Source of the DNA: Cyanobacteria bacterium HKST-UBA04
Lineage (GTDB): Bacteria; Cyanobacteriota; Vampirovibrionia; Vampirovibrionales; JAGQHJ01
DNA length: 32,250 nucleotides
Assembly: GCA_020431915.1 (NCBI GenBank)
Contig: JAGQHJ010000024.1
Location: forward strand, 1-32,250
Direction: 5' to 3'
The translations under genes were made by a program, and so were the position numbers. The notes beneath the pieces were generated by a model that was not told the origin of the DNA, did no database searches, and saw only the letters and a list, made by a program, of their open reading frames with translations. This document shows positions 20,024-28,522 of this stretch, in pieces (position 1 is the first letter of the stretch; every line of letters starts with the position of its first letter).

Positions 20024-21454
20024 ATGGGATCGATGCTCGCCGCCATTTTAAGTGACAAACCATTTAGCGCCAGCCGTAATTTCTTTATTTCGGCTCTTTT
20101 TTGGTTGTTGATTGGTACCACGGTTGGGTTGATTGCCTCGCTGCAGTTCACGGCGCCCGATGCCCTGAGCGGTGTGGCCCAGCTCTCTTTTGGTCGGATT
20201 CGCCCGGTGCACATTAACACCATTCTGGTGGGCTGGTTGTCGATGGGTTATGTATCCTGCTATTTTTACCTGTTGCCGGTTTTGACCAAGCGAAACGGCT
20301 TGTGGAGCGAGTGGCTGGGTAATTTAACGTGTGCGGCGTGGAACGTAACCCTGTTGCTGGGTGTGCTGGCCATTGCCAACGGAAATACCGAAGGGCGTGA
20401 ATATGCCGAGCTGGCCTTGACGTTGAACGTGTTTGGCTACGAGCTGCAACTGGCCGACTGGCTGGTATTGGTTGCCCTGCTGCTGCTGGCGTTTAACTGT
20501 TTTATGACGGTGGCCACGGGGCAGGAGAAAAAATGGTACGTGTCGCTGTGGTACATGATGGGCTCGCTGTTCTGGTTCCCCTTTGTCTGGATTATTGGTA
20601 ACCGTGCGTTTGTGCAGCTTGACGGCCTGAACGATGCCATTGCCGGCTGGTTCTATGGTCACAATATTTTGGGTATGTGGTTTACCACCGGTGGTGTCGG
20701 CATTATGTACTACCTGGTACCCCGGTTTTCGGGTAACCCGTTGTACAGCCACACGTTGTCCATGATTGGCTTCTGGACCATCGCTATGTTCTACGCGCCG
20801 ACGGGGACGCACCATATTCTGCAGTCGCCGGTGCCGGAATGGCTTAAGGCGGTTGCGGTTATTGCCAGCGTCTTTTTGTTGGTGCCGGTATTGACCGTGT
20901 TGGTTAACTTCTTTATGACGATGAAAGGCAAGTGGGGGACGGTTAGCGACCATATAGCCCTACGGTTTGCCGTAGCCGGCGGATTTGGGTACCTGTTTAC
21001 CTGTATGCAGGGACCCTTCCAGGCCACACGCTTTATTAACTGGTACCTGCACTTTTCGCAGTGGGTGGTAGGGCACGCGCATATGGCCCTGCTGGCCACG
21101 TTCTCCTTCTTCGTGTTTGCGTGCAGCTACTATATGATTCCCCGTATCCTCAAGCGCAAGATGTTTAGCCGGGAGTTGGCCATTTGGCATTTCTGGCTCA
21201 GCCTGCTGGGCTGGATCATCATGATGATTACCCTGACGATTGCCGGGTTGGTGCAGGCCGCCGGCTGGCACTTCGCCGTGCCGTTTGACCAATGGGTCAT
21301 TGAGTTGGTGCCCTATTGGTTGCTGCGCTCCTTCTCTGGCGTGTTGATTGTAGGTGGCCAGATTCTGTACGCTTACAACATGTATAAGACCATCTTTAAC
21401 GGTGACGAGTGCGAACCGTTGCCTGAATCGAAAACGGGGGCACTCTATGTTTAG
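20024..21454 (+). CDS. ccoN: cbb3-type (C-family) cytochrome oxidase catalytic subunit, divergent
   Basis: A 476-residue polytopic inner-membrane protein, the oxygen-reducing subunit. Ligands are visible: low-spin haem His H63 (RPVHIN) and H353; CuB ligands H213 (YGHNILG) and H263/H264 (GTHHIL); high-spin haem His H351 (VVGHAHM). YGHN and the surrounding IMYYLVPR match CcoN, not NorB or A/B-family oxidases. Tyr323 aligns with the cross-linked Tyr of CcoN. The normally conserved Glu of the STFEGP motif is Gln here (CMQGP, Q329), a point against a fully canonical pump. AGGAG lies 14 nt before the ATG. It opens the 13-gene cluster and is followed by its CcoO partner. Confidence 0.9.
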   Translation: MGSMLAAILSDKPFSASRNFFISALFWLLIGTTVGLIASLQFTAPDALSGVAQLSFGRIRPVHINTILVGWLSMGYVSCYFYLLPVLTKRNGLWSEWLGNLTCAAWNVTLLLGVLAIANGNTEGREYAELALTLNVFGYELQLADWLVLVALLLLAFNCFMTVATGQEKKWYVSLWYMMGSLFWFPFVWIIGNRAFVQLDGLNDAIAGWFYGHNILGMWFTTGGVGIMYYLVPRFSGNPLYSHTLSMIGFWTIAMFYAPTGTHHILQSPVPEWLKAVAVIASVFLLVPVLTVLVNFFMTMKGKWGTVSDHIALRFAVAGGFGYLFTCMQGPFQATRFINWYLHFSQWVVGHAHMALLATFSFFVFACSYYMIPRILKRKMFSRELAIWHFWLSLLGWIIMMITLTIAGLVQAAGWHFAVPFDQWVIELVPYWLLRSFSGVLIVGGQILYAYNMYKTIFNGDECEPLPESKTGALYV

Positions 21455-21487
21455 TATTAACGTAATGATGACCCGTTTGACCGGTAT

Positions 21488-21492
21488 GGAGG
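21488..21492 (+). promoter_or_regulatory. Ribosome site supporting the GTG start of the ccoO-like gene
   Basis: GGAGG lies 12 nt before GTG 21505, a spacing matching other genes in this window. There is no ATG in this frame between the stop at 21478-21480 and the first membrane helix. Confidence 0.45.
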
Positions 21493-21504
21493 CCACGCAG
21501 CGCT

Positions 21505-22446
21505 GTGCGAATTAACTATTTTGTTGCCGGTGGCTTTGTCGTCCTGATTTTCTTCGTCATTATTTTTGTGACGGCCATTTTGCCGGCGACCACCTTTAAA
21601 CCAAAACCGTCTGCAGCCGCCATTGTGTATACCGAGCAGGAACTGCGCGGCCGCAATATTTATCGGCGTGAAGGCTGCTTCTATTGCCACTCCATGTTTA
21701 CCCGCTACCAGGATCGCGAATACGGCGAGATGGTGACGGCCGGTGACTACGTCAACGAAACCCCGCACATCCTGGGGACGGCGCGTACGGGTCCCGACCT
21801 GAGCAATATTGGCAACAACCGGTATGCCACCGACTGGCACCGGGCCCACCACAGCTATCCGCGCAAGGTGAAGCCGGGATCGATTATGCCGAACTATTCC
21901 TTCCTCTCCAAGCAGGATATGGACGACCTGGTGGCTTTTCTGCAGACGTTGGGCCGCCAGCGCAACCAGCCCGAGTGGGTAACGGCTCCGCAGGAGCTGC
22001 GTGACGAGTTTGATGCCGTTAAATCCCATGTGGACGTGAATTCATCGGCTGCCGCCAATGCGGGCCGGGGCATCTACATGCAGAACTGTGCCGGCTGCCA
22101 CGGGGTAACCGGTCGTGGTAACGGTCCGGTCAGTATCACCATGATTAAAAAGCCGGCCAACTTTACCCGGCCGTTTTACAAGAACTACGGTGATGCCATG
22201 TGGTACTACCGTGTCAAAGAAGGTGTGGCAGGGACGCGTATGCCGCGTTGGGGCCAAACTCTGGGCAAAGAGCAAATGCTATACCTGGTGGCCTTCCTGA
22301 AGACCTTGCCTAAAGACAGCCAGGCTGCCGGTGAGGAAATCACCTCCTTCCAACAGCTCGATGACCCGGTTGCCTTGAGCAAAAACTACAACCTGATTAA
22401 GCAGTTGGGTGAACAAAGCCCGTATGGCACGGGGAGACCGGAGTAA
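21505..22446 (+). CDS. ccoO: CcoO-like cytochrome c fused to a second cytochrome c domain
   Basis: A 313-residue membrane-anchored dihaem cytochrome c: one N-terminal helix (about 6-26), then a CcoO-type domain with haem motif CFYCH (58-62), the CcoO hallmarks TGPDLSNIG and DWHRAHHSYPR, and Met129 in IMPNY. A second domain follows with CAGCH (195-199) and MPRWG (M246 likely ligand). In canonical cbb3 the second type of domain sits on the separate CcoP subunit, so here electron entry has been moved onto CcoO. The start is GTG. A 22-codon frame (21447-21515) ending just inside this gene in another frame leaves open a frameshift at the N-terminus. The stop overlaps the next ATG (TAATG). Confidence 0.88.
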   Translation: MRINYFVAGGFVVLIFFVIIFVTAILPATTFKPKPSAAAIVYTEQELRGRNIYRREGCFYCHSMFTRYQDREYGEMVTAGDYVNETPHILGTARTGPDLSNIGNNRYATDWHRAHHSYPRKVKPGSIMPNYSFLSKQDMDDLVAFLQTLGRQRNQPEWVTAPQELRDEFDAVKSHVDVNSSAAANAGRGIYMQNCAGCHGVTGRGNGPVSITMIKKPANFTRPFYKNYGDAMWYYRVKEGVAGTRMPRWGQTLGKEQMLYLVAFLKTLPKDSQAAGEEITSFQQLDDPVALSKNYNLIKQLGEQSPYGTGRPE

Positions 22447-22634
22447 TGGTTGTCCTGTTGTCTGCCAATTGCCCCAATTGTTTCCCGGCTATGGGACTCT
22501 CTTCCGGCTGGATTCTGGCCCTGTTCATCTGTGCCCTGTTTTTTCTGGCGGCAGTGGCGGCCATGGCCGTGGCTTCCAAGACGGGATATCTCGATAACCT
22601 GGAAGACACGAAGTTCTCTATGTTGGAAGACTAA
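22446..22634 (+). CDS. ccoS: CcoS-like oxidase assembly protein
   Basis: A 62-residue protein with one membrane helix (about 20-43) and the C-terminal pattern GYLDNLEDTKFSMLED. This resembles the CcoS ending (S-G-Q-[FY]-D-D-L-E-x-P, then R-[IM]-L-x-D). CcoS is needed to mature cbb3 oxidase (cofactor insertion). Unlike typical CcoS it has an N-terminal stretch with a CPNC motif (residues 9-12), which might bind copper or haem. Its ATG overlaps the ccoO stop by one base, so translation is coupled. The assignment rests on a short tail and on context. Confidence 0.65.
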   Translation: MVVLLSANCPNCFPAMGLSSGWILALFICALFFLAAVAAMAVASKTGYLDNLEDTKFSMLED

Positions 22635-22652
22635 CAAGGAAACCCCTGTCCT

Positions 22653-22817
22653 ATGACCGATCCAACACCTCAAGCAACGGAAACAGACCCAACTGCCGGG
22701 CCGGATTATGCAGAATTTGAAATCGGCAAACACCGTGTCCCCTGGTTCCTCTGGGTGTTTTTTGTCCTAATCGTTAGCTGGGCGTCGATTTCCTGGATTA
22801 AGTTTTTCGGATACTAG
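22653..22817 (+). CDS. Small membrane protein resembling the CcoP/FixP N-terminal anchor
   Basis: A 54-residue protein: an acidic Thr/Pro-rich start, then an amphipathic stretch leading to KHRVPWFLWVFFVLIVSW and one membrane helix (about 30-50). A short charged lead with an x-x-P-W-x-x-W motif into a single helix recalls the FixP-N domain that anchors CcoP in cbb3 oxidase; here no cytochrome follows. AAGGA lies 12 nt before ATG 22653. It probably replaces the membrane anchor of CcoP, with the haem domains supplied by the CcoO fusion and the lipoprotein cytochrome c that flank it. Confidence 0.6.
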   Translation: MTDPTPQATETDPTAGPDYAEFEIGKHRVPWFLWVFFVLIVSWASISWIKFFGY

Positions 22818-22827
22818 GATTGAACGA

Positions 22828-23616
22828 ATGATGATGAAACCACGGTTACTCACACAATTAGGTCTGCTGGCAGTATTGGTGGCAGGCTTTGCAGGTACGC
22901 TTGCGTTGACTGGCTGTGGTGAGGCCCTCAGTACGCGCAACTACGACGATGTGGCTGAAAAAATCGAGGCCGAACGCCCGCAGCCCAACGCCGAAGATGA
23001 TTTTTCCTTCCCCACGGTGGCGCCCAGCCTGAGTCGGGGTAAGCAGGTGTTGGCCGAAAAATGCCCCGGCTACCCGGCGGCCATGAAAACCAAAGCCAGT
23101 GTCGACGGCCAGCGTCCCATCGACATGTACATTGACATGGCCCATGGCAAGCACTCCTGCTCCAAGGAAATGAGCCGCGACGATCGCTGGGCGGCTGTTT
23201 TCTACGTGCGTTCGTTGGGTGGTGAATACGATTTCACGATGAACGTGGCCGACGTCAAGGCCTTGTTTGGTGCCAACTGTGCCGTGTGCCATGGCAACAA
23301 GGGCAAGGGCAACGGGCCGCTGTATACTGGCCACGCGTCGGCGCACGAACTGGGCATGGCCCCGGTGAAAAACGACTTCTCGCCGCCGGCAGCCAATTTC
23401 CATGATTTGCCCCGCTTGTACAACCGTACGAACGAGCAGTTGGTGATGTTTGTCAAGGAAGGGATTTACCCTTCGGCAATGCCCAGTTGGTATGGGCGAG
23501 AGGATAAGGACAAGGGTGTTGTCTTTAACGACGCGGTTATCACGGATCTTGTCCACTACGTCCGCTCTTTGTCTCTCGACAGTGAATCCCAGAACAATTT
23601 GGGTGATAATAGTTAA
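22828..23616 (+). CDS. Lipoprotein cytochrome c with one intact and one degenerate haem domain
   Basis: A 262-residue exported cytochrome c with a lipobox (LTGC, Cys30). Two cytochrome c-like domains can be traced. The first (about 65-130: SRGKQVLAEKC up to AVFYVRSL) has CPGYP (79-83) where C-x-x-C-H is expected, so it cannot bind c-type haem in the normal way. The second (about 140-250) has CAVCH (151-155) and a probable Met ligand in AMPSW (M218). A monohaem lipid-anchored electron carrier between the Rieske/cytochrome b part and the oxidase is the likely role. Three ATGs in a row can start it; AGGA is 8 nt upstream. Confidence 0.85.
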   Translation: MMMKPRLLTQLGLLAVLVAGFAGTLALTGCGEALSTRNYDDVAEKIEAERPQPNAEDDFSFPTVAPSLSRGKQVLAEKCPGYPAAMKTKASVDGQRPIDMYIDMAHGKHSCSKEMSRDDRWAAVFYVRSLGGEYDFTMNVADVKALFGANCAVCHGNKGKGNGPLYTGHASAHELGMAPVKNDFSPPAANFHDLPRLYNRTNEQLVMFVKEGIYPSAMPSWYGREDKDKGVVFNDAVITDLVHYVRSLSLDSESQNNLGDNS

Positions 23617-23632
23617 CGCTCTATTGCCGTTT

Positions 23633-23638
23633 AGGAGG
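23633..23638 (+). promoter_or_regulatory. Distant but strong ribosome site before the Rieske gene
   Basis: AGGAGG, a full consensus, sits 14 nt before ATG 23653. No other start in frame is closer, so the long spacing seems real and is shared by neighbours. Confidence 0.55.
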
Positions 23639-23652
23639 TTGAACCCCGCATT

Positions 23653-24267
23653 ATGGACCGGCGCGCATTCTTAAAGTTATTTTTGGGCTTGCCCGTATTG
23701 GGTTCGCTGCTGTTGTTCATTTCGCCGTTGTTCCGCTACCTGAAGCCTACGGCTGGCGTGTTTCCCCACGGGTTAACCTCCGAGCCCGACGCCCCCCAGA
23801 AGGTGCGTGCCATTGAGTTTAGCCTTAGCGAGTTTGATAAGCCCTGGGTGGCCAAAGAGTTTCTTTTCGAGCAAAGAAACCCGGAATACACCCGCCAAGG
23901 TGCCCAAATCAGTCGGGTTCCCGGGTTTGCCCTGCGAGTACCCTCAGCCAGTGGCAGCGAATACAAGTTTGTGGTGGTTAGCCGCATCTGCCCGCACATG
24001 GGGTGTATCTTCAACTACATCCAGGATCCGCATGTTTGCTCGGAAGGCTACAACTACACCCCGCCCAATGGGACGCCGATGTTTGGTTGCCCCTGTCACT
24101 TGAGCGTCTATGATCCGTTGCAAACGGAAACCATCGATGGCAAGGAAGTCTATGGCAAGGTGGTCAGTGGCCCTGCGCCTCGTCCACCCCGCTATTTCGA
24201 TTACAGCGTCGACCCAGCCGCCGGTAAGCTTGTTATCAGCAGCCTCGAGTCAGGGGGGATCGCATAA
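23653..24267 (+). CDS. Rieske [2Fe-2S] protein, high-potential type
   Basis: A 204-residue membrane-anchored iron-sulfur protein that takes one electron from quinol at the cytochrome b Qo site and passes it to cytochrome c. The N-terminus has twin-arginine character (MDRRAFLKLF) with a helix at about 8-28. Cluster ligands are C113 and H115 in CPHMGC and C146 and H149 in CPCHLSVYD, with C118 and C148 as the usual disulfide. Ser151 and Tyr153 match the residues that raise potential in bc1-type Rieske proteins, so a high-potential cluster is expected. The insertion between the two boxes is somewhat long. It lies directly before cytochrome b no. 1. Confidence 0.93.
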   Translation: MDRRAFLKLFLGLPVLGSLLLFISPLFRYLKPTAGVFPHGLTSEPDAPQKVRAIEFSLSEFDKPWVAKEFLFEQRNPEYTRQGAQISRVPGFALRVPSASGSEYKFVVVSRICPHMGCIFNYIQDPHVCSEGYNYTPPNGTPMFGCPCHLSVYDPLQTETIDGKEVYGKVVSGPAPRPPRYFDYSVDPAAGKLVISSLESGGIA

Positions 24268-24269
24268 CA

Positions 24270-25697
24270 ATGGGAACCGTTGTGATTGGACAAAAGGTGA
24301 ACTCCCTGATCGATTCCGTCAAGCGCTACTTTACGGATCGCCTTGCCAAGATTGATATTTTTGACGAAACCCAGGTGGCCAAACAGGAAACGTCGCCCTG
24401 GTATCAACTGGGTGGATTTGTTTATCTGTTCTGGATGATTACGGTGGTTTCCGGATTGTTTCTGGTGGCCTTTTACATTCCCACCATTTACCAGGCCTAC
24501 GATTCCATCGAGCTGATCAAGGAAAGCCCGCTGTTGAGTATCATTCGTGGGATGCACAAGTACGGTGGCGACGCCATTATTATTGCAGCCACCCTGCGGT
24601 GCTACCGTATCTGGTTTAAGGGCGAGTACAAGAACAAGGGCGAGTTCAACTTTATTATTGCCATGATCACCTTGCTGGCGGCCATGTACTCCGGGCTGAC
24701 CGGATACCTGCTGATCTGGAACCAGCGTGCCTTTTGGGCGACCAAGGTTTTTGCCACCTTCCCCACCTACCTCGATATTGCCCCGGCGGTTAACCAGTGG
24801 TTCTTGCCTCACATTACCGGGTTGGTTACCTCCACGATTGGCACCATGACCCACCAGGGCATGAACACCTCGCAAATCCTGTTGGGGGGGTCTTCCATCG
24901 GTCAGGCCACCATGACCCGTTTCTTCTCGCTGCACTTTGCCTTTTCCCTCATTATGCTGGTGGCCACCGAGCTGTACTTCTATGCCAACCGGGCCAAGCG
25001 CATTAACCTGAACCGCTGGCAGGTCCTGGTATTGATACTGATGCTGATTTTCACGTCCGTGGTGCTGCCTGCCGAAAGCGGCAGCCGGGCCAACCCCGAA
25101 GTAACTCCCCTGCCGATCCTCTCGGACTGGTACTTCCTGGCCCTGTACCAACTGCTTAAATATATGGACCCCTACTGGGCCACGTTATGGACGGTGGCCA
25201 TTCCCTTCGGGTTTATTGCCATCTCCTTCCTGGATTTTGGTCAGGAAACCAACCCCTGGCGCCGGCCTATTTTTACCATGGGGATGATCATCGGTTTCAT
25301 CGATTTCATTGTCTTCTCGGTACTGATTATCTTCAACCAGGCTGATATTAATACCCACCCGCCCTTCTGGTATGCCCAGATGATCCTCATGTTCACGATT
25401 GGTGAACTCTGGCACTTCGCGCTTTATCGGCAAATGAACGTGTGGCTGTGGTGGCTGGTGCCCAACGTTCTGTTTAGCTTCTGGTACTTCTTTATGCACG
25501 TCATTCCCAAGCCCTTGCCTCCCGAGAGCTTGCAGTGGATTTACAACGTGCAGGTGACGGGCAGCATTCCAGAAAACATGGGCCACCACCCGTGGCTGAC
25601 CATGTGGCTGTTCTTCACGCTGGCCCTGGTTGCCCTGACGGCATGGTTCTATACCCTGTTGCCCAAGTCCGGTGCAAATGCTGAGGGGGCTGCATGA
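24270..25697 (+). CDS. Cytochrome b no. 1: Qo motif present, bH haem ligands missing
   Basis: A 475-residue polytopic protein joining b6-like and subunit-IV-like parts in one chain. In helix B, RGMHKYGG gives the first His (H96), but the partner 14 residues on is Arg110 (TLRCYR) where His is expected. In helix D, H222 (FFSLHF) is present, but the second ligand position (236/237) is Tyr/Phe. By bc1/b6f structures the retained pair binds haem bL (near Qo) and the missing pair binds bH. The Qo motif reads SDWY (285-288; usual PEWY/PDWY) followed by FLALYQLLK. Further helices extend the C-terminus. It is 2 nt after the Rieske gene and certainly its partner. Confidence 0.88.
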   Translation: MGTVVIGQKVNSLIDSVKRYFTDRLAKIDIFDETQVAKQETSPWYQLGGFVYLFWMITVVSGLFLVAFYIPTIYQAYDSIELIKESPLLSIIRGMHKYGGDAIIIAATLRCYRIWFKGEYKNKGEFNFIIAMITLLAAMYSGLTGYLLIWNQRAFWATKVFATFPTYLDIAPAVNQWFLPHITGLVTSTIGTMTHQGMNTSQILLGGSSIGQATMTRFFSLHFAFSLIMLVATELYFYANRAKRINLNRWQVLVLILMLIFTSVVLPAESGSRANPEVTPLPILSDWYFLALYQLLKYMDPYWATLWTVAIPFGFIAISFLDFGQETNPWRRPIFTMGMIIGFIDFIVFSVLIIFNQADINTHPPFWYAQMILMFTIGELWHFALYRQMNVWLWWLVPNVLFSFWYFFMHVIPKPLPPESLQWIYNVQVTGSIPENMGHHPWLTMWLFFTLALVALTAWFYTLLPKSGANAEGAA

Positions 25698-26026
25698 TGA
25701 CCCTGATGACGAAGACCGCCGCCACCAATCGCTCGATGGCCCCAGGCCGCTTTGACTGGCTGGCTTTGTTGATGTGGTGGGTGGCTTTTGGCACCGCTAC
25801 CGTAACGCTGTCGAAGGTCTTTGAAACGTCCCGGTTGCTGACCAGTGGGGCTGTGGGTGCTTCTTGGCTGCCTTTGGTCGGGTGGGGGCTGTTGCTGTTT
25901 GCAGCGGTCTTTTACCTGGGCTATCGGTCCTACGAGAACCTGAAGCGCAAGGGTGAGCTGGGCCGTCAATGGTCGGTGTACGAACGGCTGTACGCCCGGT
26001 TTAACCAAGCGGGAGGTGGCAACTAA
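25694..26026 (+). CDS. Small two-helix membrane protein of the respiratory cluster
   Basis: A 110-residue protein with two predicted membrane helices (about 21-42 and 55-77) and a basic C-terminus (YENLKRKGELGRQW). I recognise no family. ATG 25694 overlaps the stop of cytochrome b no. 1 by 4 nt, and the next gene starts directly after its TAA, so it is translated with the complex. A structural subunit of the cytochrome b assembly is the natural inference. Confidence 0.65.
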   Translation: MMTLMTKTAATNRSMAPGRFDWLALLMWWVAFGTATVTLSKVFETSRLLTSGAVGASWLPLVGWGLLLFAAVFYLGYRSYENLKRKGELGRQWSVYERLYARFNQAGGGN

Positions 26027-26275
26027 ATGTGTATGAAAACCATCCTTAAAACAGGCGGTGCCGTGGTTTTAACCCTGGCCGGGTTTTCTCTGCTGCCCCT
26101 GCTGTTTCTTAACGAGCAGAAAACCGCTACCGTGGCCGGTTACGAAGCTTATTTCCATTGGGCTTACTTGGCCGGTGCGTTGATGGTGCTGGCCGGGTTT
26201 GCGTATGTGCTGGCATTGGGCCATGATGAAGTGGCTACACTGGACGAAGCCCACCAGGCTTCGGATAAATCGTAG
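26027..26275 (+). CDS. Small two-helix membrane protein of the respiratory cluster
   Basis: An 82-residue protein with two hydrophobic segments (about 9-28 and 44-65) and a short acidic tail (DEVATLDEAHQ). No family is recognised. The start ATG follows the previous stop with no gap; GGGAGG lies about 10 nt upstream inside the previous gene. Probably an accessory subunit of the cytochrome b complex. Confidence 0.6.
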   Translation: MCMKTILKTGGAVVLTLAGFSLLPLLFLNEQKTATVAGYEAYFHWAYLAGALMVLAGFAYVLALGHDEVATLDEAHQASDKS

Positions 26276-26296
26276 AGTAGGAGACGGATTTCGTTT

Positions 26297-27481
26297 ATGT
26301 TGCGCGACGTGGTATCAGACGCCTATAGAAATGTTATCGAAGCCTTGCGGACGGTAACGTTGTGGCTGGAAAAAGGCCTGAACCTGGTCTTTACCCAAAA
26401 GTACAACCCGTTGTACTACCATGGCGCGTTGCCCAACTTCTTCTTGTGGGTGCTGTACTTAAGCGGCCTGCTGCTGTTTGCCTACTACGTGCCTACCCTG
26501 GAAGGCGCCTATAATTCGGTCAACTACATCACGAGCCGAATTCCTTCGGGTGCCTTGTTCCGGGCCACACACCGGTATGCCGCCGACGCGATGATGATTT
26601 TCGTGCTGGTGCACTTTTTCCGGGTGCTGTTTACCGATCGGTATCGCGAGTACCGCATTCTGCCCTGGATTACCGGGGTGCTGCTCATTACGGTCATGTT
26701 CATTGCCGGTTTAACCGGGTACATGCTCATTTGGGATGCGGATTCCGTGGCGTTGACCTTCCGCACCATGGAGCTGCTCAACGCCATTCCGGTTATCGGT
26801 CCGTCCGTTACGGCGCTGCTGATTGGCGGCCAGCAAATTACCGACTATACCCTGACACGGTATATGTTCCTGCACTTTGCCATCCCGTCGTCGATGCTTT
26901 TCTTCCTGTGGTGGCACTACCTGCGCATTACCCGCCCTGTTACCAATGCGCCGCTGGCCCTGAACCTGCTGATGTTTGGCGGTTTGCTGATGTTCTGCGG
27001 TATTTTCCCCGTTGCCATCGGCCAGGCGCCCCCGGTCAACCTGTCGGACATGGCCTTTATTCCGCAGGCCATCAAGGATGTTGATTGGCTGTACATGTTC
27101 CCGCAAGGCTTCCTGGTTACCGGCAAAACGATTGGTTTTGCCTGGCTCGTAACCCTGGGTATCCCCTTGGGTATGCTGCTGCTGCCCTATGTTCAGAGCA
27201 AGCAGTTTGTGGGCCAGTTTGCCCAAGTGGTTAGCGATAACTGCACTGGCTGCTCGTTGTGCTACCATGATTGCCCCTACGAAGCCATTGAAATGCACGA
27301 TCGGGACGACAACACCAAGTTTAAACGGATTGCCGTGGTCGATGTCGGCCGCTGTGCCAACTGCGGCTTGTGTGTCGGGGCTTGTGCCTTCAAGGCCATC
27401 GAGATTCCCCGGAGCCAAACCCCCAATGTCTTTGCCGAGATCGAAGCGGCCATGGCCCGTGCCGAAGCGGCCCCCGTGTAA
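26297..27481 (+). CDS. Cytochrome b no. 2 fused to a 2[4Fe-4S] ferredoxin
   Basis: A 394-residue membrane protein. The b6-like part carries all four haem ligands: H92 and H106 in helix B (THRYAADAMM to VHFF), H193 and H207 in helix D (FLHFAIP to WWHY), so two b haems are expected. Two more helices follow (about 221-242 and 278-300). The place of the Qo motif reads VDWL (262-265), so the PEWY Glu is lost. The C-terminal domain (about 310-370) has C-x2-C-x2-C-x3-C twice (C316/319/322/326 and C353/356/359/363), a bacterial dicluster ferredoxin that by helix count faces the cytoplasm. The next gene is MvhD-like. AGGAG lies 13 nt before the ATG. Confidence 0.9.
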   Translation: MLRDVVSDAYRNVIEALRTVTLWLEKGLNLVFTQKYNPLYYHGALPNFFLWVLYLSGLLLFAYYVPTLEGAYNSVNYITSRIPSGALFRATHRYAADAMMIFVLVHFFRVLFTDRYREYRILPWITGVLLITVMFIAGLTGYMLIWDADSVALTFRTMELLNAIPVIGPSVTALLIGGQQITDYTLTRYMFLHFAIPSSMLFFLWWHYLRITRPVTNAPLALNLLMFGGLLMFCGIFPVAIGQAPPVNLSDMAFIPQAIKDVDWLYMFPQGFLVTGKTIGFAWLVTLGIPLGMLLLPYVQSKQFVGQFAQVVSDNCTGCSLCYHDCPYEAIEMHDRDDNTKFKRIAVVDVGRCANCGLCVGACAFKAIEIPRSQTPNVFAEIEAAMARAEAAPV

Positions 27482-27522
27482 TGTTGTCTAATCCGAAACG
27501 TTCCTAAGGATACACAAGGAAA

Positions 27523-27936
27523 ATGGCCACTGCCCCTAAAAAACTGAATATCATTGCCATCGTCTGTGAGCGCAGTGTTAATTTCGACAAGAAACTCAAC
27601 GAGCAGAACCAGATTAAGGAATGCCCCAACGTCACTGTAATCAAGGTGCCTTGCAGTGGCCAAATTCAGCCTTCCATGATTGAAGCACCGCTCAAGGCTG
27701 GGGCCGACGGGGTGATTACTACCGGGTGCCGCATTGGGGACTGCTATTACCGTGAAGGCAACAAGTTCCTTCGCGAGCGCCTATTGGGCGAACGGCAGCC
27801 CAAGCTTCGGGCCACGGTGGATCGCAAGCGGTTGCAGGCGTACTGGCTCAGTGCGTTGGAGTTTGGTCAATTTACCCAAATGGCCTCGTCCTTCTCGGCC
27901 TACCTCGAAACCTACGAATCGGCCACCACAGGCTAG
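27523..27936 (+). CDS. MvhD/FlpD-like iron-sulfur electron-transfer protein
   Basis: A 137-residue cytoplasmic protein of the hydrogenase-delta (MvhD) family, which passes electrons between heterodisulfide reductase-type flavoproteins and partner enzymes in methanogens and some bacteria. It has VPCSGQIQP (C44), then the family core GADGVITTGCRIGDCYYREGN (C69, C74). The N-terminal double-Cys motif usual in the family is reduced to a single C15 (VCERS), with C34 as a possible substitute. No HdrA, HdrBC or hydrogenase gene is present. Placed after the cytochrome b-ferredoxin fusion, it probably links those clusters to a soluble partner. TAAGGA lies 12 nt before the ATG. Confidence 0.82.
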   Translation: MATAPKKLNIIAIVCERSVNFDKKLNEQNQIKECPNVTVIKVPCSGQIQPSMIEAPLKAGADGVITTGCRIGDCYYREGNKFLRERLLGERQPKLRATVDRKRLQAYWLSALEFGQFTQMASSFSAYLETYESATTG

Positions 27937-28017
27937 CGCCTCTCTTGGTAGGTGGGTGCCTGATTTTCAGATCATCCTTTAAAATAGAGCTTAAGTAACA
28001 GGAGGGTTATACCCCTT

Positions 28018-28146
28018 ATGGTTCGCAAGAAAATTGAAGCCTCAGACACACAAACCAGCCGGTTTGTCTCTTACGTCTGGTTTTACGGGTTCTTTTTCTT
28101 CCTGTTGCTGCTGATTGCCAGCTATGGTCTGATTGCAGAGTCCTAG
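28018..28146 (+). CDS. Very small single-helix membrane protein
   Basis: A 42-residue protein: basic start (MVRKKIE), one helix (about 17-40, WFYGFFFFLLLLIASYGL), ending AES. It has a strong AGGAGG (28000-28005) 12 nt before ATG 28018, which makes it believable despite its size. Probably a small subunit of the oxidase or cytochrome b complex, as is common for such clusters. No family is recognised. Confidence 0.6.
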   Translation: MVRKKIEASDTQTSRFVSYVWFYGFFFFLLLLIASYGLIAES

Positions 28147-28196
28147 CAGGGCGTCATTGTTGCCGTTTCCTGGAGAACGCTGGAGAAGTAAGACGA

Positions 28197-28424
28197 ATGT
28201 CTGATCATCATGACGAAGACGTGATTTCCACGGCCCATTTTTTTGAAGAATACTGGCCCTTGCTGGTCTTTGGCGGGCTATTCACCCTGACAGTCTTCTT
28301 TCCGCTGTTGTTTTTACCCCCAGAGGCCAAAGGTATTTTTGGTTGGCTTGTGGGTGTCACGGCCGTCTTGAGCGTTGCCATCCTGTTGGGACCGACCCTG
28401 CTCGGCGGCAAGGCCAAGAAATAA
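28197..28424 (+). CDS. Small two-helix membrane protein, last gene of the cluster
   Basis: A 75-residue protein with an acidic His-bearing N-terminus (MSDHHDEDV) and two helices (about 20-41 and 46-67), ending in GGKAKK. GGAG lies 11 nt before the ATG. It ends the respiratory gene series and is followed 75 nt later by a terminator-like hairpin. No family is recognised; an accessory subunit is inferred from context only. Confidence 0.6.
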   Translation: MSDHHDEDVISTAHFFEEYWPLLVFGGLFTLTVFFPLLFLPPEAKGIFGWLVGVTAVLSVAILLGPTLLGGKAKK

Positions 28425-28499
28425 CCGCTGCAAACGTAGTAATATAGGGGTTGCCTTGAGCCATTGCCTTGGGCCTCTGTTTGTACTATTACTTGTATT

Positions 28500-28522
28500 C
28501 GGCCTTTTTGGGGCCGGTTTTT
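28500..28522 (+). terminator. Terminator at the end of the respiratory cluster
   Basis: CGGCC (28500-28504) pairs with GGCCG (28512-28516) around a 7-nt loop, followed by G and TTTTT (28518-28522). It lies between the last cluster gene and rpsP, where a transcript end is expected. Confidence 0.6.

What the first reader, a model, noticed from the sequence alone, without database searches (positions are those of the whole stretch)
20024..28424. Thirteen-gene respiratory cluster mixing cbb3 oxidase, Rieske/cytochrome b and a ferredoxin/MvhD branch
Seen directly: one strand, short gaps or overlaps, genes for CcoN-like, CcoO-cytochrome c fusion, CcoS-like, FixP-N-like, cytochrome c lipoprotein, Rieske, two different cytochromes b, MvhD-like and four small membrane proteins. 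Known: cbb3 and Rieske/cytochrome b make a quinol-to-oxygen chain; MvhD-type proteins and dicluster ferredoxins handle low-potential electrons. Inference: the products form one supercomplex in which quinol oxidation feeds O2 reduction by the Rieske branch and exchanges electrons with a cytoplasmic ferredoxin-type carrier by the cytochrome b branch (bifurcation or its reverse). I cannot tell whether this has been described.
Basis: partly seen in the sequence, partly recalled or inferred. Interest (0 to 1): 0.85.

Follow-up and report, generated by a model that had tools for sequence, protein, structure and literature searches.

The report
Split cytochrome b respiratory gene cluster
A conserved gene cluster in non-photosynthetic relatives of cyanobacteria encodes an oxygen-respiring electron chain whose cytochrome b appears to be divided between two complementary proteins, one of them wired to an iron-sulfur connector in the cell interior; if the two work as a pair, they would be a natural version of a mutant enzyme so far only engineered in the laboratory.

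Summary
Thirteen same-strand genes (20024-28424) encode a C-family oxidase core, a CcoO-cytochrome c fusion, cytochrome c, Rieske, two cytochromes b, an FlpD/MvhD protein and small membrane proteins. The order is conserved class-wide in Vampirovibrionia (28 relative loci, about 40-73% identity for most genes), and FlpD co-occurs with the cluster almost perfectly (75 of 79 genomes). New here: the two cytochromes b are reciprocally specialised. CytbA keeps the quinol-oxidation (Qo) side and the heme bL histidines, but both heme bH histidines are gone in 29/29 sequences (Arg/Lys and Tyr). Cytb-Fd keeps all four histidines in 30/30, has lost Qo-side conservation, and carries two [4Fe-4S] motifs followed by MvhD. 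Eleven ordinary cytochromes b from the same genomes keep all four. In several genomes this pair is the only cytochrome b of its type. Best reading: a heterodimeric complex III in which the low-potential electron must cross bL to bL into cytb-Fd, whose cytoplasmic side is an iron-sulfur junction. Electron direction through MvhD is undetermined. Complex III/IV association in this group was already published; in the papers I could read, the MvhD arm and the split were not. New variant of a known kind.

The parts
20024..21454 (+). CcoN-like catalytic subunit of a C-family heme-copper oxidase
   Evidence: COX1 7.7e-80, ccoN TIGR00780 2.6e-77 (below its equivalog cut-off); H63,H213,H263,H264,H351,H353 and Y229/Y230 in 26/26
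21505..22446 (+). CcoO fused to a second cytochrome c domain
   Evidence: FixO 1.2e-31, Cytochrom_C 1.7e-17; two CxxCH in all relatives
22446..22634 (+). CcoS-like small membrane protein
   Evidence: no Pfam hit; homologue at same place in relatives; CcoS-like ending is by eye
22653..22817 (+). single-TM protein, FixP N-terminus-like by eye
   Evidence: no Pfam hit; conserved position
22828..23616 (+). cytochrome c lipoprotein; one CxxCH here, two in relatives
   Evidence: Cytochrom_C 2.5e-10; heme motifs; first motif replaced by CPGYP
23653..24267 (+). Rieske [2Fe-2S] protein
   Evidence: Cluster ligands C113,H115,C146,H149 and disulfide Cys invariant 29/29; S151 29/29; position 153 Y17/F12
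24270..25697 (+). cytbA: cytochrome b with bL ligands and Qo features but no heme bH histidines
   Evidence: b6 H86 and H187 equivalents His 29/29; H100 equivalent R24/K5; H202 equivalent Y29; SDWY 29/29; Q142, W146, G171, G172 29/29
25694..26026 (+). small membrane protein (gene 8)
   Evidence: no Pfam hit; homologues between the two cytochromes b in several relatives
26027..26275 (+). small membrane protein (gene 9)
   Evidence: no Pfam hit; small membrane ORF at same place in relatives
26297..27481 (+). cytb-Fd: b6-type cytochrome b with all four heme His, fused to a C-terminal 2x[4Fe-4S] domain
   Evidence: Cytochrome_B 3.2e-30, Fer4_7 1.8e-9; four His 30/30 and eight Cys 30/30; Fd part resembles HdrA C-terminal ferredoxin domain
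27523..27936 (+). MvhD/FlpD-like [2Fe-2S] protein
   Evidence: FlpD 4.5e-24; four Cys 29/29; single copy per genome in 12 of 12 cluster genomes
28018..28146 (+). 42-aa single-TM protein (gene 12)
   Evidence: read from sequence; homologue after MvhD in most relative loci
28197..28424 (+). small membrane protein (gene 13), detected only in close relatives
   Evidence: L064,L065,L067,L068
28499..28517 (+). terminator-like hairpin after the cluster, before rpsP
   Evidence: consensus scan only; such matches are above shuffle expectation in this region as a whole, so weak

Best explanation
The cluster encodes a complex III-IV unit in which the work of cytochrome b is divided between two subunits that most likely pair as a heterodimer. 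CytbA with the Rieske protein oxidises menaquinol at a Qo site. One electron goes Rieske -> cytochrome c (gene 5) -> CcoO-cytochrome c -> CcoN -> O2. The other goes to heme bL of cytbA, which has no heme bH behind it. It therefore has to cross to heme bL of the partner cytb-Fd and then to its heme bH on the cytoplasmic side. There cytb-Fd forms a junction with a short Fe-S wire (2x[4Fe-4S], then the [2Fe-2S] of MvhD). Shown: gene content, order, ligand patterns, co-occurrence. Inferred: heterodimer, bL-bL transfer, supercomplex. Direction through MvhD is open; I lean slightly to electron entry from a cytoplasmic donor towards heme bH and menaquinone (about 55:45 over exit), because MvhD proteins in known systems receive electrons from a dehydrogenase and because exit from menaquinol is uphill.
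For: Reciprocal specialisation on one alignment: cytbA 0/29 bH His but 29/29 Qo-side residues; cytb-Fd 30/30 four His with Q142, W146 and G171 equivalents not conserved; 11/11 ordinary cytochromes b of the same genomes keep all four His. Helix-C Gly121 near heme bH is G in 30/30 cytb-Fd and 11/11 ordinary, but only 9/29 cytbA. One Rieske gene for two cytochromes b, order conserved class-wide. FlpD in 75 of 79 cytbA genomes; 70 of 75 on the same contig and strand, 1.6-3.0 kb downstream; Fisher p 1e-70, which counts sampled genomes, not independent events. The pair is the only cytochrome b of this type in G430, G343 (one contig), G403 and G390, and the cluster oxidase the only heme-copper oxidase in 9 of 12 genomes, so it probably does complex III work there. 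Natural fusion cytb-2x[4Fe-4S]-FlpD next to a ba3-like oxidase in Defluviimonas. Heme bL-bL transfer on a catalytic timescale is demonstrated in engineered bc1 with one half lacking Qo function and the other lacking bH/Qi function (PMC4330944).
Against: No structure: both AlphaFold2 models failed (pLDDT 44 and 47) and hetero-oligomers could not be modelled. Heme loss is inferred from ligands; Lys or Tyr could in principle ligate a heme (Arg hardly). Most cytb-Fd sequences retain a D-W-F/L-Y-like motif at the Qo position, so its Qo side is eroded rather than erased. Gly37 on the bH side is kept in cytbA. Several genomes also hold ordinary Rieske/cytochrome b complexes.
Confidence: 0.5

Rival explanations
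1. Outward bifurcation: the low-potential electron of menaquinol is pushed bL -> bL -> bH -> [4Fe-4S]2 -> MvhD to reduce a cytoplasmic carrier or pyridine nucleotide, paid for by O2 reduction, as proposed for anammox Rieske/cytochrome b complexes.
For: Published precedent: Kuenenia Rieske/cyt b complexes with NAD(P) oxidoreductase and a proposed heme-to-FeS path (PMC12954380). Rieske Ser151 invariant, Tyr in 17 of 29, residues that PMC12954380 links to higher potential.
Against: Menaquinone genes in 12 of 12 cluster genomes; raising an electron from about -80 mV to ferredoxin level against the membrane potential needs more than one Rieske electron is likely to pay (textbook potentials, own estimate). 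No NAD(P)-binding subunit in the cluster. The Defluviimonas module stands next to an oxidase without any Rieske.
Confidence: 0.22
2. Two separate enzymes share one operon: a Rieske/cytbA quinol:cytochrome c reductase working without a Q-cycle, and a cytb-Fd/MvhD donor:menaquinone oxidoreductase.
For: No physical evidence of contact; Defluviimonas shows that a cytb-Fd-FlpD module can exist without a neighbouring Rieske or second cytochrome b.
Against: CytbA alone would leave the bL electron without an exit; in engineered bc1 the bH knock-out loses Qo-Qi connection (PMC4330944). Reciprocal erosion and strict co-occurrence are unexplained.
Confidence: 0.2
3. CytbA is a largely structural paralogue, and the Rieske protein works with cytb-Fd in an ordinary Q-cycle.
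For: Cytb-Fd has all four heme ligands and a DW(F/L)Y-like motif in most lineages.
Against: Qo-side residues are invariant in cytbA (Q142, W146, G171, G172, SDWY all 29/29) and eroded in cytb-Fd.
Confidence: 0.06

Closest known systems
Melainabacterial complex III/IV combination (Soo et al. 2014, 2015, 2017; Matheus Carnevali et al. 2019, PMC6349859)
   Same: Same lineage and very likely the same locus: O2 reductase next to petB/petC-like genes, described as a fusion of complexes III and IV; Obscuribacter and Vampirovibrio annotated with complexes I-IV and cbb3.
   Different: In the passages read no mention of a second cytochrome b with ferredoxin domain, of MvhD, or of missing heme bH ligands. 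Soo et al. 2017 (Science) could not be read, so prior mention there is not excluded.
Cytochrome bc1 / b6f complexes
   Same: b6-type cytochrome b homology, Rieske protein, Qo-type motif, quinol to cytochrome c.
   Different: Known complexes are homodimers with bL and bH in each cytochrome b; here one of two non-identical cytochromes b lacks bH ligands and the other carries Fe-S clusters.
Anammox Rieske/cytochrome b complexes with NAD(P) oxidoreductase (Kustd1480-1485, Kuste4569-4574; PMC12954380)
   Same: Rieske/cytochrome b with a cytoplasmic Fe-S arm and a proposed third outlet for the low-potential electron.
   Different: b6-like cytochrome b plus subunit IV, modelled as a homodimer; flavin/NAD(P) subunit and multiheme cytochromes c; no MvhD or oxidase described in the passages read.
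HdrA C-terminal ferredoxin domain with MvhD (methanogen MvhAGD-HdrABC, HdrA2)
   Same: Fd domain of cytb-Fd plus MvhD match adjacent C-terminal parts of HdrA2 (571-648 and 647-771) and the Fd domain matches solved HdrA structures.
   Different: No HdrA flavin domain or HdrB/C in the cluster; the electron partner is a heme b protein.
Engineered cross-inactivated bc1 dimers (PMC4330944)
   Same: One half Qo-active with the bH/Qi branch disabled, the other half bH-active and Qo-inactive.
   Different: Engineered fusions of two cytochromes b by point mutations; here natural, conserved and with an Fe-S outlet.
Defluviimonas plasmid locus NZ_CP156080 (L092)
   Same: Cytochrome b with four His, two [4Fe-4S] motifs and FlpD in one 526-aa chain, next to an oxidase.
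   Different: B-family (ba3-like) oxidase with a CuA-type subunit II; no Rieske or second cytochrome b nearby.

Membership tests
Rieske/cytochrome b (bc1/b6f) complex | Rieske protein with CxH and CxxH cluster ligands | tested here: met
   29/29
Rieske/cytochrome b (bc1/b6f) complex | Cytochrome b partner of the Rieske with His pairs for both bL and bH | tested here: not met
   cytbA 0/29 for bH; the four His are met only by cytb-Fd, 30/30
Rieske/cytochrome b (bc1/b6f) complex | PEWY-type Qo motif | tested here: inconclusive
   SDWY 29/29 in cytbA; degenerate in cytb-Fd
Rieske/cytochrome b (bc1/b6f) complex | Dimer with electron-transferring bL-bL contact | not testable with these tools
C-family (cbb3) heme-copper oxidase | CcoN with CuB, heme b and heme b3 ligands and active-site Tyr | tested here: met
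   26/26; ccoN model 2.6e-77 but below equivalog cut-off
C-family (cbb3) heme-copper oxidase | CcoO and CcoP subunits | tested here: inconclusive
   CcoO present as a fusion with cytochrome c; no separate CcoP recognised in the cluster
MvhD/FlpD | Pfam FlpD and four cluster Cys | tested here: met
   85.3 bits against cut-off 22.3; 29/29
MvhD/FlpD | Association with HdrA and a hydrogenase or formate dehydrogenase | tested here: inconclusive
   FlpD occurs once per cluster genome, only in this cluster, with no Hdr or hydrogenase gene in it; HdrA and hydrogenases elsewhere in the genome were not searched
Anammox-type NAD(P)H-forming Rieske/cytb complex | NAD(P)/FAD oxidoreductase subunit in the cluster | tested here: not met
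   No such ORF among 20024-28424
Melainabacterial complex III/IV unit | CcoN-type oxidase adjacent to Rieske and cytochrome b genes | tested here: met
   published in PMC6349859

The most novel reading that the evidence does not exclude
A natural, obligate cytochrome b heterodimer in which heme bL-to-bL transfer between two different subunits is the only path for the low-potential electron, ending in an Fe-S/MvhD outlet that links aerobic respiration to a cytoplasmic low-potential carrier.
Probability: 0.4. Interest if true: 0.9.

Novelty: new variant of a known kind. Interest (0 to 1): 0.72.

Why it matters
Whether electron transfer between the two halves of a bc complex matters in living cells has been argued from engineered dimers. 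A conserved natural pair with complementary losses would make it obligatory and directly testable. It would also show how a respiratory complex III can exchange electrons with the cytoplasm, in the sister group of Cyanobacteria that is used to reconstruct the origin of aerobic respiration.

Tried and rejected
AlphaFold2 of cytb-Fd and cytbA: unusable (pLDDT 44 and 47), so no fold search was run. First idea that invariant His42 of cytb-Fd sits at the b6 Cys35 (heme cn) position: rejected on the fuller alignment; Tyr41 is at 35 and His42 at 36. Chance or artefact: rejected by class-wide conserved order and invariant ligands. Flanking-gene hitchhiking: rejected, the neighbours (oppD, S41 peptidase, rpsP) are shared only within Vampirovibrionales while the cluster persists elsewhere. 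One sequence picked by coordinates for the C106 cytochrome b was the wrong ORF and was replaced by proper controls. Paper searches for a described MvhD-Rieske-cytochrome b oxidase cluster found none. The genome-wide pattern scan finds close relatives only, so absence outside the class is not shown.
Full report
Setting. The window is contig C99 of a 2.7 Mb draft genome (87.7% complete). Its nearest named relatives are Vampirovibrionales and Candidatus Melainabacteria / Caenarcanales MAGs, so it belongs to the non-photosynthetic sister group of Cyanobacteria.

Observation. Thirteen ORFs run on the + strand from 20024 to 28424 (the 42-aa gene 12 was read). Family searches confirm a CcoN-like COX1, a FixO-cytochrome c fusion, a cytochrome c, a Rieske protein, two cytochromes b, a dicluster ferredoxin domain at the C-terminus of the second, and an FlpD/MvhD protein. 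The small ORFs have no Pfam match where tested, but most recur at the same positions in relatives. A divergent oppD-like gene precedes the cluster and rpsP follows it, with a terminator-like hairpin at 28499-28517 (weak).

Conservation. tblastn of each protein on eight relative loci and on 20 loci taken from six families of the class (one of these is the same contig as a locus) gives the same order: CcoN - CcoO-c - CcoS-like - FixP-N-like - cytochrome c - Rieske - cytbA - small membrane ORFs - cytb-Fd - MvhD - 42-aa protein, apart from loci cut by contig ends and small ORFs that escape detection. Identities for most genes run from about 40 to 73%, lower for the cytochrome c and small ORFs. The flanking genes are shared only within Vampirovibrionales, so the unit itself is conserved, not the neighbourhood. 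CytbA was found in 79 of 382 sampled class genomes and FlpD in 78; 75 have both, 70 of these on one contig and strand with FlpD 1.6-3.0 kb downstream, the other five on different contigs. In 12 cluster genomes examined, FlpD is single copy and lies in this cluster; a genome from a family without the cluster (G003) has none. In a phylum-wide sample of 386 genomes, cytb-Fd relatives at E <= 1e-40 appeared only in this class.

The key finding. On a common alignment with cyanobacterial cytochrome b6 numbering, cytbA has His at 86 and 187 (heme bL) in 29/29, but at 100 it has R (24) or K (5) and at 202 Y (29): no heme bH histidine. Cytb-Fd has all four in 30/30. Eleven ordinary cytochromes b from the same genomes have all four. 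L003 and L069 are the same contig, so these are 28 and 29 distinct loci. Helix-C Gly121, next to heme bH, is kept in cytb-Fd and ordinary proteins but in only 9/29 cytbA. Conversely, the Qo-side positions Q142, W146, G171 and G172 and an SDWY motif are invariant in cytbA, whereas cytb-Fd varies at 142 and 146, has N at 171 in 22/30, and has a degenerate motif. Each group is monophyletic in a quick tree (support 1.0 and 0.96). The losses are therefore complementary and shared across the class.

Other cofactors. Rieske ligands, the eight ferredoxin Cys, four MvhD Cys and the CcoN heme and CuB ligands are invariant, so apart from heme bH of cytbA (and the first c heme of gene 5 in the window alone) every centre looks functional.

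Physiological setting. The cluster oxidase is the only heme-copper oxidase in 9 of 12 cluster genomes. In G430, G343 (a single contig), G403 and G390 the cytbA/cytb-Fd pair is the only cytochrome b of this type; the others, including the window's genome, have further cytochrome b loci. MqnA/MqnD-type menaquinone genes are present in 12 of 12, 2-oxoacid:ferredoxin oxidoreductase-type genes in all, and the NADH-binding subunit NuoF is missing in 11 of 12, while complex I core genes are present in the window's genome. Complex I probably takes electrons from ferredoxin (inference).

A natural fusion. A Defluviimonas plasmid encodes one 526-aa chain with four-His cytochrome b, two [4Fe-4S] motifs and an FlpD domain, next to a ba3-like oxidase with a CuA-type subunit II, CyoE and SCO, and without a Rieske gene nearby. 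It suggests that cytochrome b, ferredoxin domain and MvhD act as one module and that the module is linked to oxygen reductases of two different families.

Mechanism. The simplest account of complementary losses in two co-encoded cytochromes b served by one Rieske protein is a heterodimer. CytbA supplies Qo and bL; the electron then crosses to bL and bH of cytb-Fd. Such bL-bL transfer has been demonstrated in engineered dimers with one half lacking Qo function and the other lacking bH/Qi function (PMC4330944). At the cytoplasmic side the ferredoxin domain and MvhD resemble the adjoining C-terminal parts of HdrA2, where MvhD passes electrons from a dehydrogenase (established knowledge). Direction is open. 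Exit of electrons from menaquinol to a ferredoxin-level acceptor would be strongly uphill, so entry is slightly favoured, but the anammox proposal of quinol-driven NAD(P)H formation (PMC12954380) shows that exit is taken seriously elsewhere.

Known versus new. That Melainabacteria combine complexes III and IV is published (PMC6349859), as are complexes I-IV with cbb3 in Obscuribacter and Vampirovibrio. In the passages I read there is no mention of the MvhD arm or of the divided cytochrome b. Soo et al. 2017 was not read and may contain part of it. I therefore rate this a new variant of a known kind.

Limits. No structural model, no biochemical evidence, draft genomes, shallow search outside the class, and sampled genomes that are related to each other, so the co-occurrence p-value overstates independence.

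Noticed in passing
window 22828-23616 (motif near 23060-23080): The cytochrome c lipoprotein has lost its first heme motif (CPGYP in place of CxxCH) while every relative examined has two CxxCH; real loss or assembly error not decided.
   Followed up: partly
L093:836-4956 (G000:C106): Another Rieske/cytochrome b locus in the same genome, followed by a protein matching cytochrome bd subunit I with a cytochrome c domain; an unusual complex III variant.
   Followed up: partly
L094:1-2342 (G000:C31): A third Rieske/cytochrome b locus, with cytochrome b fused to cytochrome c domain(s), more like an ordinary complex III.
   Followed up: partly
L092:11981-17584 (Defluviimonas plasmid NZ_CP156080.1): ba3-like oxidase operon with a cytochrome b-2x[4Fe-4S]-FlpD fusion protein and a hemerythrin gene; the fusion is annotated only as cytochrome b N-terminal domain protein.
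   Followed up: partly
L054, L058, L059 (cytbA of the large-genome families): CytbA has a C-terminal extension of about 150 residues ending in an extra hydrophobic stretch, absent in the window's family.
   Followed up: no
cluster-bearing genomes: NuoF is missing in 11 of 12 cluster-bearing genomes although complex I core genes are present in the window's genome; complex I probably uses ferredoxin.
   Followed up: partly
window 26297-27481, residues Y41/H42 of cytb-Fd: Invariant Tyr-His at the b6 Cys35/Leu36 position, close to where the Qi/heme cn site lies in b6f; His42 is invariant in 30/30 but absent in the ordinary cytochromes b and in the Defluviimonas fusion.
   Followed up: partly
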